A stretch of DNA of 58,172 nucleotides from a virus, in the IMG/VR virus record IMGVR_UViG_3300036766_000221, positions 1 to 58,172 of that record. One strand, written 5' to 3'. Shown one piece after another: positions 6,066 to 51,117 of the stretch (position 1 is its first letter; every line of letters starts with the position of its first letter). A program made the translations under genes and the position numbers. The notes beneath the pieces are model-generated. The model was given only the letters and a program-made list of their open reading frames with translations. It made no database searches and was not told where the DNA came from.

Positions 6066-7328
6066 CTACGCCATCGTCTCGACCTTCAATTGAGGATCGG
6101 CGCCCACGCGGGCGCTGACGATCTGGAACCCGCTCTGCTTCGCGGCTTCGATGAAATCCGCCATGGTTTGCTGGTCCAGGTGCTCCAGATTGTCAGCCAC
6201 CATCAACGGCAAAGAACCGGCCTTCAGCGAGGCGATCTGAAACGAAAGAAGAATCTTCCGCGCGGTGTTGATCTGCGTCTCGAACGACAGCCCGTTTATG
6301 AAAATCTCGCCCTCGCGGACCTCGACCCCAGCTATGGGCAGTTTGGCCAGGCGCTCGCGCTTGAGATTTTCCAGGTTTTCGAGAAACACCGTCATCCGAT
6401 CCGACTTGCCCGCCGTCTCGCGGTATTTGGCGCGCATCTGCTCAATAGTCTGTTTCATGCCGGCGACTTTGGCGGATTGCTCAAGATTCGCCCGGGCCAA
6501 TGCGATCTCCTGCTGGTGCTTAGATCGGGGCTCACAGAATCGTTCCGTGATTGCGTGAAGATTTCCCTCGGCTAGTAGGCGGGCGTCATCTTTGGCCCGT
6601 TCGGCCTGCTTGGTGATCTCCTCCAGCTCTTCGCTAAGGTTCTTGGCTACAATGGCGCGCTGCGTGGCTTCAGCCTCGCCCAGTTTCCCGAGTTCTGCTT
6701 CCTGCGCCGCCGCTTGCTCGCGCCAATCGATTTCTTCACCATCCGCCGGCAGATTGTGCGACAAATCCCGGATCGTTCCTTCGGCATCGCGTGCCTGGCG
6801 ATTCAGCGCGGCGCGCTCGTCGAACAGCCGCTTATGGACACCGTTGAATTGATCCAGTGTCAGAGGGTCGGGAAACCGCTCGCCCATCGCGGCCTGAACT
6901 TCCTCCACCGAAAAATGCACGGGCATGGCTTCCAGCAGAAATTTCGCACGGTCCTTCTTGTCCGCCATGATGAAGCTGAGCGGATCAAAGGCAAAGCTGG
7001 CGGCTAAGGAATCGACGAAGGCTTGAGGCTTTGGGACCTCTACACCATCGGGCGATACCACCTTCAGCGTGTACCCCGTTACCGTGGTAGTTCGCGTCAC
7101 GGTGAAGCCATTCGTCAGCGTCATCTGCACGACGCTCTTTTTTGTGCCCCTGCGGATGCGGTCCGGATGATATCCGCTCTCAAAGATTCCCTTGATGGCG
7201 TCCAGGCAGGAGCTCTTGCCGGATCCGTTCACCCCCGTGATAATCGTCAGCGCACCGGGCCGGATCACCAAGTGCTCGATACTGAAGGTGTCTGTGATTT
7301 CAAAGTCCTTCACGCGGATATCTGGCAT
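6066..7328 (-). CDS. SbcC/RecF-like SMC-type ATPase
   Basis: 420 residues. The N-terminal ABC-type ATPase half has Walker A GVNGSGKSS at residues 32-40 in the context IRPGALTIITG. A central coiled coil runs from about residue 165 to 320, and the C-terminal half carries ISTA-type signature remnants and LPLMVADNLEHLD as the Walker B (ADN/E). This arrangement matches small phage AAA_23/RecN-like proteins that work with a recombinase or exonuclease. It starts a few bases after the RecT-like gene, so the pair may act in recombination-dependent replication. Confidence 0.75.
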   Translation of the reverse strand: MPDIRVKDFEITDTFSIEHLVIRPGALTIITGVNGSGKSSCLDAIKGIFESGYHPDRIRRGTKKSVVQMTLTNGFTVTRTTTVTGYTLKVVSPDGVEVPKPQAFVDSLAASFAFDPLSFIMADKKDRAKFLLEAMPVHFSVEEVQAAMGERFPDPLTLDQFNGVHKRLFDERAALNRQARDAEGTIRDLSHNLPADGEEIDWREQAAAQEAELGKLGEAEATQRAIVAKNLSEELEEITKQAERAKDDARLLAEGNLHAITERFCEPRSKHQQEIALARANLEQSAKVAGMKQTIEQMRAKYRETAGKSDRMTVFLENLENLKRERLAKLPIAGVEVREGEIFINGLSFETQINTARKILLSFQIASLKAGSLPLMVADNLEHLDQQTMADFIEAAKQSGFQIVSARVGADPQLKVETMA

Positions 7329-41984: not shown

Positions 41985-43025
41985 TTAGAGAGAAGCGAGA
42001 ATGGCTCGCGCACGCAAACGGCGGCGCTCATCTTGACTTGAGTCCGGTTGAAATTCCGCAAACTGCTCAGCGGTCAACTTATATTTTGCGCTGTTCTCTT
42101 CGGTAACTTCGATATCGTGTTCTTTGCAGAGTGAGACGAGTTTGCTCCAGGATGCGGCCTTGCTCTCTTCGCTCACACCTTTCAGCTGCTTGAACCGCGC
42201 CAAGGCGTTTTGCAAGTGCGCTTTGGTTTTCTCGTCTGTCGAGAATTTCCACGGCAGCTTCCATGAGCGAATATCCGCGAGACCTCCGACGATCAGAAAT
42301 GCCGCCGCCGGCAGGTCTTCATCGTCCGCCCGTTTGGTCACGGCTTTGGGCTGCGCGCTTCGATCATGCCCTTCACAGTTAACGTCCTCACAGTCTTCGT
42401 TGGTGCAATTCTCGCAATCGCCGTCTTGGCACTCGGGGCACTCACACTCGCAGCTTGCATTGCGTAGCTGTTTAGACCGACGCTCAAGATCATCGGGCAT
42501 GCCATGGGGCCAGAGAGAACGCACGGAGCTGGACGTCGCTGTGCTTGCGGGGGATACGACAGGACTGACGTCATACAAATCGGCATCGAGAATCTTGCGG
42601 GTCGCGCTGACAAAGTTGCCCTTGTCGTCAAACTCGTCGGCCCACTCATCTTTGCGAGCAACGAAGCCAAATGAGGACCCATCGACGTCGCCGCGTTCAA
42701 TGGCGTCTACAACAAACTGGGACCGCTCGTTGGCCGCCGGCTGGCAGTCGTAAGCCAGTCCAATATTGTCTTCGCTCACGGAAAGCGTCTTGGGTGTGCG
42801 GCCAAGGATGAAATTGTCGTCGTGATTGAAAAAGCATCGAACGGCCGCGCCTTCAGCTAGTGTGCGCTTGAACGCGCCGGGTGCAACGACTTCCTTGAAC
42901 CAGCCGACATCGTAGACCACGTTGAACACGGAGGCGTAACCTTTGATGTGAGCCGCGGAGCCATCGGTGCCTCGAATCAATCGGACATCTCCCTTGATTT
43001 GGCGCCGCTCCAGTTTGTCTTTCAT
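41985..43025 (-). CDS. Prohead protease (HK97-type, U35) with C-terminal extension
   Basis: 346 residues; the ATG overlaps the portal stop (ATGA). Residues 1-165 have the protease fold: IKGYASVFNVVYDVGWFKEVVAPGAFKRTL, NHDDNFILGRT (His68), GDVDGSSFGF (Ser118). The protease cuts the capsid delta domain. Residues about 190-225 are a Cys/Asp/Glu-rich insert (CECECPEC, CENC, CEDVNC), and from about 240 a second helical domain follows (PAAAFLIVGGLADIRSWKLPWKF, then NALARFKQLKGVSEE). Typical proteases end near 200, so the extension, perhaps a metal site and an interaction domain, is unusual. Confidence 0.85.
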   Translation of the reverse strand: MKDKLERRQIKGDVRLIRGTDGSAAHIKGYASVFNVVYDVGWFKEVVAPGAFKRTLAEGAAVRCFFNHDDNFILGRTPKTLSVSEDNIGLAYDCQPAANERSQFVVDAIERGDVDGSSFGFVARKDEWADEFDDKGNFVSATRKILDADLYDVSPVVSPASTATSSSVRSLWPHGMPDDLERRSKQLRNASCECECPECQDGDCENCTNEDCEDVNCEGHDRSAQPKAVTKRADDEDLPAAAFLIVGGLADIRSWKLPWKFSTDEKTKAHLQNALARFKQLKGVSEESKAASWSKLVSLCKEHDIEVTEENSAKYKLTAEQFAEFQPDSSQDERRRLRARAILASL

Positions 43026-44958
43026 TGGATTGCCTCCTGGCTCGGCTTTGCCGTGCCGTTCTGACGCGCGGCCGCTCGGACCGCGTTGATTGCCATCCTG
43101 AATTCGTTATCGAGCACATCATCGCTGACCTTTGCGCCGGCGAGACGCTTGTGCATCCCGGAAATGTAGACGCCGATGCGGTCCTGAACCTCAGGCGGAG
43201 CCATAGCCTCTTCGGTCGATGCAAAAGCGGCATCCGCAATCGTCATAAGAATCGGCGCGAAAGCCCGGTGAAAGTCCCTTGCATCCGGCTTATTCAGTGC
43301 CTGAAGCCGATTAAAGGCATCGGTAAAGAGCCTTGAATAGCGCTGGGCTGCCTTGTCATCCGCTGCGGGAGAGTTGGGCTCAGCCGTCTGCCCGTCTCCC
43401 GGCTTAGCTGCAAGCGGATGCGCGGCGTCTTGCATGTTGACCGGCATCCAATAAGTTTCCCCAGCCGGACCTTTGATAGGATTCCAATCTAGGAAAAATT
43501 CCCGGATGTCATCCGAATTAGCTATGCCCCACTGTTTCAGAAGGGCAATCAACTTGCCTCGCGATTCCGCATCTGGCGTCAGCAGATCCTGGTAATAGAA
43601 ACCTGGAAAATACTTCCCAGCAGTCCGACCGGTCTTGGGGAATAGCTTGCGCTTTAGTTCCGGCTCCCAGGCTTTGATCCATGGACGCAGGGTATATTGA
43701 ACGAACTCAATCGCTTCCTGCTCCGCAGTCGCCCGATTCGACTTCCCGCCTTCGCCGAGCATACGCTCCGGGACATGAAAAATAGCGCCAATTTCCTGGC
43801 GCTGATGAACGCGCGTTTCCAAAAATTGCGCCTCGTTTGGCTTTACATCAGACTGATGCCAAGTCATCCCGGTTTCGAGCACCATCGGCGTCAGCATGTT
43901 TTCGCCACCTTGGGACTCACGAAGGGACTGTTTGAATGCCTGAATGGCTTCGGGCTTCATCGTGTTCGGTAATTCAACAACGCCGGTAGGCCGAATGCCA
44001 TTGGCGAAGAACTTGCCGGCAAACTTTTCAGTGGCGAGCGACAGACCCATGACCTGGCGCGACAGTTCAACGACGGATTTCGCCAGACGGCCATCGAGTG
44101 AAAGCCCCAGAACATGGAGCATGTTGTCGGCTGATATCAGCCGCTCGGGAGAAGTCCCAGCGCCTCCAAGCCCGGCGCCATCGGTTGTCGTATAAACCAG
44201 TGCTCCCCGTTCCAGCTTTTCATCCCCAACGGTTTGTGCCTCGGTCAAGCGTCGCGGACGTGTGGCATTCGGATCCCTCGGCCAAAGTCCCTTAATGCGA
44301 TTCGCTTGGTCTCTTTCGATTTCTGCATAAGCATTGCCCCACAGGAGCGCGTGGCATTGCAGCGTCTTCATGAACGTGAACCCGGTCATTTCCTTGTTGG
44401 GTTCGTCGTGGAGAATCCAATGAAGATCCTGATCAAAGGCGAGACGCTTGCCGCGCGGCTCCAGTTGCTCGTAGACGTTAAGGTCGAGAGACCCTATGCC
44501 GCCAGAGATCAGATCCACGCAGGTGTAGACCGTTGAAACTTGGAGCGCGGTGAGTTCGGAAACGCGGATACCGGCATCCGTCCGGCCACCGTTGAATCAC
44601 ATTGTTGCGCGGCGCCCGCATCCGACGACGCTCTGCATGTTCCCATGCAGATCAGACTATATCTTCAGTTCGTACACGAACCGCCGCGCGCTTCGGAGTC
44701 GCTGACTCCTACTCCCTCTCGGGATAGTCGTTACACCTTCCCCGGATTTTATCGGGGCTTGGCTCGGTATTGGCCGGTCTGGCGTTCCACCGAGTTCACG
44801 CGGTTACGACACATTCAACTGTTTTGGTTTATGTCGAGTAACCATTCTGCTGGGACATGATATTTATCGAATGGTCACTGCTGTCCCTCCCAGAATTGTT
44901 AGGACAGTGGAGTTGCAGGATTTTCCAAACTACTGCGGAACTGCTTTAAGAAGCCCGT
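43022..44958 (-). CDS. HK97-type portal protein, gene split by a group I intron
   Basis: The gene is read as join(44901-44958, 43022-44589), about 541 residues. Exon 1 (19 codons plus one base) encodes GFLKQFRSSLENPATPLS after an ACG at 44958; exon 2 continues GRTDAGIRVSELTALQVSTVYTCVDLISGG. An in-frame TGA just upstream of exon 2 and a TAA just after exon 1 show that removal of the intron is needed. AGGGAGG lies six bases upstream of the ACG and no ATG, GTG or TTG is suitably placed, so ACG is the likely start. Other portal motifs: FMKTLQCHALLWGNAYAEIERD, KFFANGIRPTGVVELP, FHVPERMLGEG, EFVQYTLRPWIKAWEPELKRKLF. It forms the 12-fold DNA gate of the head. The exact 3' splice site is uncertain by a few bases. 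Confidence 0.85.
44590..44900 (-). ncRNA. Group I self-splicing intron (type IA-like) in the portal gene
   Basis: About 311 bases without an ORF. P1: exon end CUGUCCU pairs with intron GGGACAG, with U-G at the splice site. P2: GUGACCAUUC with GAAUGGUUAC. P3: CCGCG with CGCGG. P4: CUCGGU with ACCGAG. P6: CCCCG with CGGGG. P7: GACUA with UAGUC, in the R and S elements (UAACGACUAUCCC and AAGAUAUAGUC). P7.1 and P7.2 hairpins (UCCC-GAGA-GGGA; GGAGUC-AGC-GACUCC), as in IA introns. P8: GUUCG-UGUA-CGAAC. P9: CUGCAUG-GGAA-CAUGCAG. The 3' end is drawn at the G of 44590, which gives a continuous reading frame; 44590-44597 is the uncertainty range. Confidence 0.93.
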
Positions 44959-45428
44959 ATTGTCCTCCCTTCTCCGCTCGCTTTCTTCAAGCGCATCGAA
45001 CGGTTCTTGCTCATTTTGCGCAGCGATTCTTCTGAATGCCGTTTACCTGCATGGCCTCGCGTGCCCGGCTTACCAAACATTGGATTACCAGCCCCACTAA
45101 ACTGCACGCGCAGCTTCTCGCGTCTCGCTTCCGAGATGCCGAACCCGCCCGGCTCCATGTTGTACCCGTGGAGATAATCACAGGACCGATGCACGGCAAT
45201 CAGCGCCGTCTCCTTAGCATTCAGTTCGACATCTGTTTCAGCGGCTTCGATCTGCTCAATCGTGAATGCGTCGGGTCCGTGCTTGCGGATTGCCTGATGA
45301 ATCCGCCACTCGCTGCCGTGGCGCGCAGAATAAACATGGTCGCTCCATCTCCCCTTCAGGCCATTCTTGGTCTGCCCGACATACACCTTGCCGTTCAGCG
45401 TGTTGCGGATCAGATAGATGATGCCCAT
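44946..45428 (-). CDS. Freestanding GIY-YIG homing endonuclease
   Basis: 160 residues. The catalytic module MGIIYLIRNTLNGKVYVGQTKNGLKGRWSDHVYSARHGS has GIIY and YVG motifs, then a catalytic ETALI Glu near residue 73. The C-terminus carries a NUMOD3-type GAGNPMFGKPG and a basic SEESLRKMSKNRS helix for DNA contact. It begins 11 bases after a small membrane gene and its last codons overlap the ribosome-binding site and start of the portal exon 1. It is therefore outside the intron, just upstream of it. It probably cuts intronless portal genes and helps spread itself and the neighbouring intron. Confidence 0.9.
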   Translation of the reverse strand: MGIIYLIRNTLNGKVYVGQTKNGLKGRWSDHVYSARHGSEWRIHQAIRKHGPDAFTIEQIEAAETDVELNAKETALIAVHRSCDYLHGYNMEPGGFGISEARREKLRVQFSGAGNPMFGKPGTRGHAGKRHSEESLRKMSKNRSMRLKKASGEGRTIRAS

Positions 45429-47746: not shown

Positions 47747-48139
47747 TTAACGGGCAAGGGAGTTGAACGGCTGAGCACCGCGAGACCCATATCCCCATGT
47801 CCGCCAGAACGCGGCTATTTCAGCGCGAGTTTTCTTTGAATGGCACGACTTGCAGAGCCCTTGCAGGTTGTCGAGTGACCACGCATCACCACCAGACCTA
47901 ATGGGCTTGACGTGGTCCACATCGGTACTGGCTTCTCTACCACACGCACGGCACAGCACGTCACGCCCGAGTACAATCGATCGCAGCCTAAGCCAGCGTG
48001 TGCTGCTGGTCTGCATCTTAAGTGGGTCATCACGTCTTGCCTGGTCATACTCTGCTCCATGCCTGTTGCTGTGGGTGGCGCAGTTGGAAAGGTTGGGGCA
48101 GCCATAGGTATGACAGGGAGACAGGGGACGAACGGGCAT
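47747..48139 (-). CDS. HNH endonuclease next to terminase
   Basis: 130 residues. The core is LGRDVLCRACGREASTDVDHVKPIRSGGDAWSLDNLQGLCKSCHSKKT, with C-x2-C pairs framing D-H, N and H residues (HNH). A helical N-terminus carries four more cysteines (CHTYGCPNLSNC). HNH genes in this position assist the terminase in cutting cos in HK97-type phages. The ATG is just after the stop of the exported gene. Confidence 0.9.
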   Translation of the reverse strand: MPVRPLSPCHTYGCPNLSNCATHSNRHGAEYDQARRDDPLKMQTSSTRWLRLRSIVLGRDVLCRACGREASTDVDHVKPIRSGGDAWSLDNLQGLCKSCHSKKTRAEIAAFWRTWGYGSRGAQPFNSLAR

Positions 48140-50049: not shown

Positions 50050-51117
50050 TCACGCCTTCTTCTCCTTCGGCTTCTTGCCCATAGCCTCCAGCTTTCGCCC
50101 CGCTTCGGCGATATCCTCGCTGGAAACAATCGAGTACCGCCGGTAGACCGCCTCGGTCTTGTGCCCACTGATCTTCATGGCCACCGACCGTGGGATCCCA
50201 GCCCGCTCCATATTGCGAACCGCAGACCTCCGCAAGTCATGGAAAAGCAAGGCAGGAAACCCCGCGCGAACGCATGCGCTACGCCATGACCGGTCGAACT
50301 GCCTGACTTGCCTGCCATCTTCGTGGATGCAGAGCCATGGCAACGGAAACTTGCCGCTGCGCTTGGCCTGAGTGGTCCGCTGGTGCAATCTGGCGGCGAT
50401 CATCTCCCGCACATCGCCGTAGATCGGCAACACCCGGCCTTCGTCGTTTTTCGTCTCTCCAGCATGCAGGCGTATCTGGTTGAGCTCCAAGTCCACCTGA
50501 TCGACCCGCAGGCCCAGGAGCTCACCCTTGCGCGCGCCGGTGCGGTACGCCAGAGCCGCCAGCAGGCGGATCGGCTTCGGGAGTTCCCGGAGGATTGCGG
50601 CATAGGTCCGATCTTCCACAAATCCTTTGCGTGGCGGGTTTTCCTTGAGGGCCGGAATATGCGGTATCCTCCCGATCAGTGGCGGGTCATGCTGCATCGC
50701 CAGGACCAGACTACGCTTTACTACAGCCAATTCTCTGTTGACTGTTGCCGCCTGGATCCCGGCCTTGGTGCGCTGCTCGATGTAGCACTGGATCGCTTCG
50801 CTGCCGAACTGCTCAACCCGGATGCGCCCTATCTTTGGCCGCAACTGGCGGTCAATACGCAACTTTAGGTCATAGATGGATTTTCGTTTGTGCCGGATGT
50901 AGTCCTGGAGCACCAGGTCCAGCAGTTGCGACATGCGCATGTGACGCGAAGCCAGTTTCCCCGCAATCGCTTCGCCCTGCCGCCGCTTCAGCAGTTTCAC
51001 TGCGTCATCCTTGCGCTCAGAATCGCTGGATTCCCGGTGCCGCTGCCCGTTGCGCCAATATTGAATCCACCAGAGATCACCGCGCAAATAGATTGTGCCG
51101 AGTCCGTATCGACTCAT
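50050..51117 (-). CDS. int: Tyrosine recombinase (phage integrase)
   Basis: 355 residues. N-terminal arm-binding beta sheet (MSRYGLGTIYLRGDLWWIQYWRNG), a SAM-like helical core-binding domain (LLDLVLQDYIRHKRKSIYDLKLRIDRQLRP), and the catalytic domain with R196 (TGARKGELLGL), K223 (GETKNDEGRVLP), H293 and R296 (FHDLRRSAVRN), H319 (ISGHKT) and nucleophile Y328 (YRRYS). It inserts and, with an excisionase, removes the phage from the host chromosome. A Lys-rich tail ends it. A pentamer leader (NGGCR) precedes the ATG. Confidence 0.95.
   Translation of the reverse strand: MSRYGLGTIYLRGDLWWIQYWRNGQRHRESSDSERKDDAVKLLKRRQGEAIAGKLASRHMRMSQLLDLVLQDYIRHKRKSIYDLKLRIDRQLRPKIGRIRVEQFGSEAIQCYIEQRTKAGIQAATVNRELAVVKRSLVLAMQHDPPLIGRIPHIPALKENPPRKGFVEDRTYAAILRELPKPIRLLAALAYRTGARKGELLGLRVDQVDLELNQIRLHAGETKNDEGRVLPIYGDVREMIAARLHQRTTQAKRSGKFPLPWLCIHEDGRQVRQFDRSWRSACVRAGFPALLFHDLRRSAVRNMERAGIPRSVAMKISGHKTEAVYRRYSIVSSEDIAEAGRKLEAMGKKPKEKKA

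What the first reader, a model, noticed from the sequence alone, without database searches (positions are those of the whole stretch)
44946..45428. Freestanding GIY-YIG endonuclease abuts an ORF-less intron: collaborative homing candidate
The endonuclease gene lies outside the intron and overlaps the portal start. In collaborative homing (known from the psbA intron of cyanophages and its freestanding endonuclease F-CphI) an unlinked endonuclease cuts the intronless allele at the insertion site and both elements spread. Here nuclease and intron are about 50 bases apart.
Basis: partly seen in the sequence, partly recalled or inferred. Interest (0 to 1): 0.75.

Follow-up and report, generated by a model that had tools for sequence, protein, structure and literature searches.

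The report
Ribozyme-less mini-intron beside full intron
In this phage's portal gene a small intron that carries splice-site guides but no ribozyme of its own sits 25 bases upstream of a complete self-splicing intron, next to a homing-endonuclease gene; related phages suggest that one ribozyme may remove both introns, which would be a natural step from self-splicing introns towards shared splicing machinery.

Summary
[quoted passage not shown] The intron's edges were misplaced. Intronless relatives and the P1/P10 pairings put it at 44830-44598 (233 nt), 115 nt from the nuclease stop.

The surprise lies between them: a second, 45-nt interruption (44900-44856) with in-frame stops. It has what a group I intron needs to define its splice sites (P1 with U.G, contiguous P10 guide, terminal G) but no catalytic core, and a 25-nt micro-exon separates it from the full intron. 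Removing both restores the conserved portal sequence. Six further phages show the same in portal genes, at three sites in all, and five more in two other genes; guides differ in sequence yet match their own junctions. Such mini-introns were seen in 7 of 11 intron-bearing and 0 of 44 intronless portals. Best reading: one ribozyme serves two introns.

Collaborative homing is partly supported: the nuclease is present in 8 of 10 intron carriers and 0 of 38 intronless ones, plus one nuclease-only case. Cleavage is untested. No RNA data exist; splicing is inferred.

The parts
44946..45428 (-). Free-standing GIY-YIG/NUMOD3 homing endonuclease gene, 160 aa
   Evidence: Pfam GIY-YIG 2e-9; NUMOD3 3.9e-6
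44901..44958 (-). Portal exon 1, coding (T)GFLKQFRSSLENPATPLS; begins with ACG after GGAGG, no standard start codon
   Evidence: homologues
44856..44900 (-). Core-less mini-intron a, 45 nt, in-frame TAA and TGA, ends in G
44881..44893 (-). Guide (IGS) of mini-intron a: CUGGGA (P10 strand) + GGGACAG (P1 strand), 13 contiguous pairs with the spliced junction CUGUCCU|UCCCAG
   Evidence: p <= 0.0005 against 2000 shuffles with the junction fixed
44869..44879 (-). 5' strand of helix H2 (AGUGACCAUUC) inside mini-intron a, pairs with the micro-exon (44847-44837)
   Evidence: unconstrained MFE; p 0.007
44831..44855 (-). Micro-exon, 25 nt, codes for (F)PAEWLLD(I)
   Evidence: conserved in the intronless portals
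44598..44830 (-). Full group I intron b, 233 nt, ORF-less; P1 CGACAU/GUGUCG, P10 GUUGAAU/AUUCAAC, ends in G
43022..44597 (-). Portal exon 2 (Phage_portal, E 3.9e-80)

Best explanation
The portal gene holds two group I-type introns and one ribozyme. Intron b is an ordinary ORF-less self-splicing group I intron. Intron a, 25 nt upstream, keeps only the substrate half of a group I intron: a guide that pairs with the end of exon 1 (P1, U.G at the cut) and, contiguously, with the start of the micro-exon (P10), plus a terminal G. It has lost, or never had, P3-P9. Most likely the core of intron b docks P1a first, cuts and ligates exon 1 to the micro-exon, and then splices itself out through P1b. Helix H2, between intron a and the micro-exon, stacks P1a next to P1b and would deliver it to the core. 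The upstream GIY-YIG enzyme most likely cuts intronless portal alleles in this conserved stretch and so spreads itself and the introns (collaborative homing). Shown: sequence anatomy, junctions, guides, distribution. Inferred: that splicing happens, that intron b's core does it, the order, and the nuclease target.
For: (1) Double splicing rebuilds SLENPxTPLS[FY]PAEWLLDIFNGGRTD (window FNGGRTDAG, L255 FQGGRTD) in 6 of 6 phages tested (window, L155, L157, L255, L318, L374), while the unspliced reading meets a stop in 6 of 6. (2) The guide spans the spliced junction with 10-15 contiguous pairs in 6 of the 7 portal mini-introns (p <= 0.0005 in five, 0.0015 in L374; L301, with a mismatch, 0.034). 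P10 and the exon change together (CUGGGA/UCCCAG against GCCGGA/UCCGGC). (3) A protein-first search that ignored guides found 8 of 149 segments; the 6 real interruptions all have guides of 13-15 pairs, the 2 false ones 7 and 10. (4) Lengths are 34-69 nt, 8 of 12 not a multiple of 3; 11 of 12 end in G. (5) Mini-introns occur in 7 of 11 intron-bearing portals and 0 of 44 intronless ones (Fisher with 39 intronless, p 3e-6). (6) Relatives have full introns at exactly the same point as a mini-intron: L278 against L318, L229 against L195, L389 and L433 against L434. (7) Portal genes of carriers are under purifying selection, dN/dS 0.07-0.08 in the 4 of 7 pairs where computable. (8) The second core type is a true group I core: 15 of 27 pairs with double changes, 99.4% of cells paired.
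Against: No RNA or splicing data. L255's mini-intron ends in A, not G. L301 has a further 20-nt frame-breaking gap (between CTG and CTC) with no guide found. H2 is not significant at 0.05 in L155, L255, L318, L413 and L382. The window's portal frame starts with ACG, so this copy may be weakly expressed, decaying or hold a consensus error. Five of the 12 mini-introns were first found by the guide criterion itself, so they do not count as independent evidence for the guide. No core-less case was seen in the 6 cultured-phage introns inspected (8 regions fetched, of 148 matching records).
Confidence: 0.72

Rival explanations
1. The mini-introns are dead scars: introns that lost their core by deletion and now break the portal gene in decaying prophages.
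For: The window has an ACG start. L262 holds a 10-nt frame-breaking remnant at the site of L195's mini-intron, and L304 has a 1-nt insertion: such scars do exist.
Against: Guides of 13-15 pairs are kept, with different sequences, in different lineages. Exon 1 and the micro-exon stay intact in 6 of 6. Portal dN/dS is 0.07-0.08 where computable. Five L301-type contigs with identical portals from separate assemblies show that such an allele persists.
Confidence: 0.15
2. Ribosomes jump over the gap (translational bypass as in T4 gene 60), with an endonuclease nearby as in that system.
For: Gap lengths 34-69 nt, a hairpin at the take-off, a stop codon right after it in several cases, a homing endonuclease next door (the T4 case is recalled).
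Against: Take-off and landing codons match in 0 of the 7 cases that one search printed in the gene's frame. The Y/F codon between PLS and PAEW is restored by splicing but would be lost in a jump. A guide that pairs with both sides of the ligated junction is not explained. Within portals the gaps occur only beside a group I intron.
Confidence: 0.04
3. The mini-introns are removed, but by another activity: an excised intron acting in trans, another ribozyme of the phage, or a protein, not by the adjacent core in cis.
For: Engineered group I ribozymes remove 64- or 100-nt introns in trans (PMC4094466, abstract and design section). H2 is not significant everywhere.
Against: Within portals every mini-intron has a full intron 23-32 nt downstream (six cases measured), and 0 of 44 intronless portals has one.
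Confidence: 0.1
4. Nuclease and introns are only neighbours: the GIY-YIG gene homes by itself into the terminase-portal junction and does not mobilise the introns. (This rivals only the homing part of the best explanation.)
For: Insertion points vary over about 60 bp; two core types; L318 has an intron without GIY-YIG, L304 the nuclease without an intron.
Against: 8 of 10 against 0 of 38 co-occurrence; nucleases at this place cluster in the tree (3 changes, shuffled mean 7.3, 0 of 500, bootstrap not settled).
Confidence: 0.3

Closest known systems
Collaborative homing (F-CphI and the psbA intron of cyanophage S-PM2; MobE and the nrdB intron of T4)
   Same: Free-standing homing endonuclease beside a gene holding an ORF-less (or nuclease-defective) group I intron; strong co-occurrence here (PMC6083498, PMC3984707, PMC2988022, passages read)
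   Different: GIY-YIG enzyme, portal gene, two core types and several insertion points; cleavage untested; a core-less intron is present as well
Twort orf142 introns and the Coxiella 23S introns: two group I introns flanking a 23- or 34-nt exon, with exon skipping
   Same: Tiny exon between two group I introns that may act together (as described in PMC10136302, passages read; the original papers not read)
   Different: There both are group I introns in their own right; here the upstream one has no core, and exon skipping would break the frame in 4 of 6
Group I spliceozyme (engineered Tetrahymena ribozyme)
   Same: One group I core recognises both splice sites of an intron that has no core and removes it (PMC4094466, abstract and section 5 read)
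   Different: Engineered and in trans; guide on the ribozyme, not in the intron; 3' site by P9.2 instead of P10
Group III introns of Euglena chloroplasts
   Same: Short introns that lost the catalytic part of a self-splicing intron and must borrow it (PMC4424553, passages read)
   Different: Derived from group II; borrowed machinery unknown; here group I, 34-69 nt, with a candidate donor next door

Membership tests
Group I introns (intron b) | Conserved core with P3/P7 pseudoknot | tested here: met
   Rfam RF00028 72 bits over cut-off 50
Group I introns (intron b) | P1 with U.G at the 5' site, P10, terminal G | tested here: met
   CGACAU/GUGUCG, GUUGAAU/AUUCAAC...GUG|
Group I introns (mini-intron a) | P1 with U.G, contiguous P10 | tested here: met
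   13 pairs, p <= 0.0005
Group I introns (mini-intron a) | Own catalytic core P3-P9 | tested here: not met
   Only 45 nt, of which 25 follow the guide
Group I introns (mini-introns in general) | Terminal G | tested here: met
   11 of 12; L255 ends in A
Group I introns (core II) | P3-P8 with covariation | tested here: met
   27 sequences, 99.4% of cells paired, 15 of 27 pairs with changes on both sides; not reported by Rfam at gathering in L278, L301, L318
Collaborative homing | Free-standing endonuclease next to an ORF-less intron | tested here: met
Collaborative homing | Endonuclease cuts the intronless allele at or near the insertion site, intron blocks cutting | not testable with these tools
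   Needs a cleavage assay
Collaborative homing | Co-distribution of nuclease and intron | tested here: met
   8 of 10 against 0 of 38, one nuclease-only
T4 gene 60-type translational bypass | Matched take-off and landing codons | tested here: not met
   0 of 7 cases printed in the gene's frame
GIY-YIG homing endonucleases (Seg-like) | GIY-YIG domain plus NUMOD3 DNA-binding motif | tested here: met
   catalytic residues Y5, Y16, R27, H31 read by eye against I-TevI from memory

The most novel reading that the evidence does not exclude
These are the first natural group I introns without a ribozyme: 34-69-nt guide-only introns whose removal is carried out by the catalytic core of a neighbouring intron, in phage genes of three kinds. 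They would be the group I counterpart of group III introns and a natural spliceozyme, caught at several stages: tandem full introns (L229), full intron and core-less intron at the same site (L278 and L318), and remnant scars (L262).
Probability: 0.65. Interest if true: 0.93.

Novelty: new variant of a known kind. Interest (0 to 1): 0.85.

Why it matters
How self-splicing introns could give up their ribozymes and depend on a shared catalyst is the central step in models of the origin of spliceosomal introns, and the known natural parallel is degenerate group II introns whose helper is unidentified. Here the dependent intron, its guide and the candidate ribozyme lie within about 350 nt, in several phages, with different guide sequences. 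The idea can be tested with one in vitro transcript. It also means that gene finders will call such phage genes broken, and that group I surveys based on the core alone miss these introns.

Tried and rejected
Translational bypass: considered first because of the stop codon, hairpin and nearby endonuclease; rejected because take-off and landing codons do not match and the guide pairs with both sides of the ligated junction.

Rfam's own 5' boundary (44910) for the intron: rejected, because joining there gives no portal frame and its P1 in fact belongs to the mini-intron.

Free scan for guides upstream of 147 introns without protein support: scores of 13 or more in 19 of 147 real against 44 of 441 shuffled segments, so not informative by itself; replaced by protein-supported junctions. 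Most hits were one-sided matches and were dropped by eye; 12 mini-introns were kept in all (L155, L301 and L318 were kept on the reading frames, since one search put forward other candidates there).

Exon skipping (5' site a to 3' site b): out of frame in 4 of 6, drops PAEWLLDI in the two in-frame cases.

Pattern GGGACAGCAGTGACCATTC in IMG/VR: no match; that stretch of the window's mini-intron was not found elsewhere.

Cultured phages: the second core type has no match in the phages collection; the first has 148 records; 8 regions were fetched and 6 of them inspected, with no convincing core-less intron.

The 1999 Twort paper (PMC22036) is not held. No natural precedent for a core-less group I intron was seen in the listings of the searches; that covers only the open-licence library.

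The GIY-YIG tree has weak support and an unsettled bootstrap; L155's nuclease was lost to the motif filter.

Full report
1. What was checked. The 160-aa ORF at 45428-44946 (minus) is a GIY-YIG/NUMOD3 protein. Downstream lie a group I intron and a phage portal gene (Phage_portal, 3.9e-80); upstream lies the large terminase.

2. Where the intron really is. The three frames of the minus strand show portal-like words that fit none of Rfam's edges: SLENPATPLS, then PAEWLLDI, then FNGGRTDAG. Intronless relatives found with the portal read SLENPxTPLS[YF]PAEWLLDIFNGGRTD without a break. This fixes intron b at 44830-44598: exon CGACAU pairs with the guide GUGUCG, and GUUGAAU just before it pairs with the start of exon 2, AUUCAAC. 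Rfam had taken another stem, CUGUCCU/GGGACAG, as P1.

3. The second interruption. That other stem belongs to a 45-nt gap (44900-44856) between PLS and PAEWLLDI, with stops in frame. Its stretch CUGGGA-GGGACAG pairs, without a break, with the junction that its removal would create, CUGUCCU|UCCCAG: 13 pairs, U.G at the cut, G as the last intron base. That is the anatomy of group I splice-site recognition, but there is no room for a core. RNA folding of the whole region, unconstrained, gives P1a, an 11-pair helix H2 between the gap and the micro-exon, and P1b, one after the other.

4. Relatives. A pattern from the intron core and portal searches gave further carriers. Mini-introns in portal genes: window, L155, L157, L255 and L301 at PLS|F; L374 at QTP|L; L318 at ENP|Q. 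Removal of both introns rebuilds the portal in 6 of 6 tested (L301 left out because of an extra 20-nt gap). Gap lengths in that order were 45, 40, 44, 41, 44, 38 and 69 nt. Full introns without a mini-intron: L156, L093, L372, L278. The full introns are of two core types. The second (core II) is not reported by Rfam in L278, L301 and L318 at gathering, nor as a group I match in L374, L318, L278 or L301 at E up to 1, but it shows P3, P4, P5, P6, P7 and P8, with strong covariation in P3, P6 and P8, over 27 sequences.

5. Statistics. With the junction fixed, 2000 dinucleotide shuffles of the gap reach the observed guide in p <= 0.0005 for window, L155, L157, L255 and L318, 0.0015 for L374 and 0.034 for L301. 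The exact junction was chosen with a freedom of a few bases, and window and L155 are related, so these are not independent exact probabilities. A protein-first search of 149 segments upstream of both core types, blind to guides, gave 8 candidates: L155, L157, L255, L374, L382 and L434 are real, with guides of 13-15 pairs; L385 (another intron's end) and L423 (low complexity) are false, with 7 and 10. The same search missed window, L301, L318, L195, L413 and the true gap of L385.

6. Other genes. Mini-introns also lie in a gene beginning MALLEAAVEAVELDAFAKEIPDLVFHGTTAYS (L195, L434, L413; no PHROG or Pfam match for relative L422) and in a gene whose relative L402 matches a major head protein family (L382, L385; phrog_1357, 1.8e-7), each followed by a core II intron. 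These five were first noticed through the guide scan; L382 and L434 were then recovered without it.

7. Origin. At ENP|Q, L318 has a mini-intron and L278 a full core II intron. At EA|AVEAV, L195 has a mini-intron, L229 a full intron, and L262 a 10-nt remnant; at IP|DLVF, L434 has a mini-intron, while L389 and L433 have an insertion whose 3' part codes for an endonuclease-like ORF. L229 also has two core II introns flanking a tiny exon. L318's mini-intron even keeps a P2-like hairpin. The simplest history is loss of P3-P9 from one of two neighbouring introns. The inference that the neighbour's core took over rests on the company they keep: in portals 7 of 11 intron carriers and 0 of 44 distinct intronless loci (43 continuous, L304 with one extra base) have a mini-intron (Fisher computed with 39 intronless loci, p 3.3e-6).

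8. Nuclease. Counting distinct portal loci with at least 900 nt upstream: GIY-YIG in window, L155, L156, L255 (as L276), L157 (as L376), L301 and L374 and L093 (it fell out of the table because its intron splits the signature); absent in L372 (deletion remnant) and L318. L278 has too little upstream. Intronless: 0 of 38; nuclease without intron: L304. The enzymes at this place cluster in a tree, but weakly, and core type and nuclease do not track each other. This fits collaborative homing as defined for F-CphI (PMC6083498, passages) and reviewed in PMC3984707 (passages), with a locus-bound rather than intron-bound enzyme.

9. Rivals and limits. Scar, bypass and trans-splicing are treated in the rival list. 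The greatest weakness is the absence of RNA evidence. The window itself is not the best test object because its portal frame opens with ACG; the other mini-intron carriers examined (L155, L157, L255, L301, L318, L374) show ATG in frame (sequences, read by eye). Purifying selection on exon 2 is clear where dS could be computed (dN/dS 0.066-0.081, 4 of 7 pairs; the other 3 saturated).

10. Hosts. Portal relatives in named genomes include Acidobacteriaceae, Terriglobia and uncultured Acidobacteriia contigs, and also a Methanoregulaceae bin, so the phage probably infects Acidobacteriota; this is inference.

Noticed in passing
window 44946-44970: Portal frame has ACG instead of ATG/GTG/TTG, well placed after GGAGG; either an unusual start, decay, or a consensus error.
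   Followed up: partly
L301:2700-2790 (same in L369, L370): A further 20-nt frame-breaking insert in W-L|L-D (CTG|CCCCAATAGGGGTCCAAGGA|CTC) besides mini-intron and full intron; no guide of its own found; H2 of this locus could act as a P1 for it.
   Followed up: partly
L374, L301, L278, L318, L229 and about 70 viral contig stretches: A family of small group I introns (TTGACTCGAACGCTGA...AATAGTC) that Rfam RF00028 does not report at gathering in the loci tested; no match in cultured phages.
   Followed up: yes
L262, reverse strand about 7173-7183: 10-nt frame-breaking remnant TAATAGTTAC at the place of L195's mini-intron: possible intron scar in the MALLEA gene.
   Followed up: no
L372:2433-2666: GIY-YIG gene with an internal deletion (FIYLIT fused to the NUMOD3 part) upstream of an intron-bearing portal.
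   Followed up: partly
L370 around 1933-1970: The nuclease's end is replaced by a sequence resembling an insertion element end (IS200/IS605-like, from memory).
   Followed up: no
window 47747-48139 minus; 50050-51117 minus: HNH endonuclease ORF upstream of the small terminase and a phage integrase: a temperate phage module.
   Followed up: no
window 44830-44598 against L093, L157, L155: Homologous introns of core type I sit at points a few to 10 bases apart in the same gene, with the guide adapted to each point: introns seem to slide.
   Followed up: partly
L301:5164-5308: Weak HEARO RNA match (32 bits, gathering 83) downstream of the portal.
   Followed up: no
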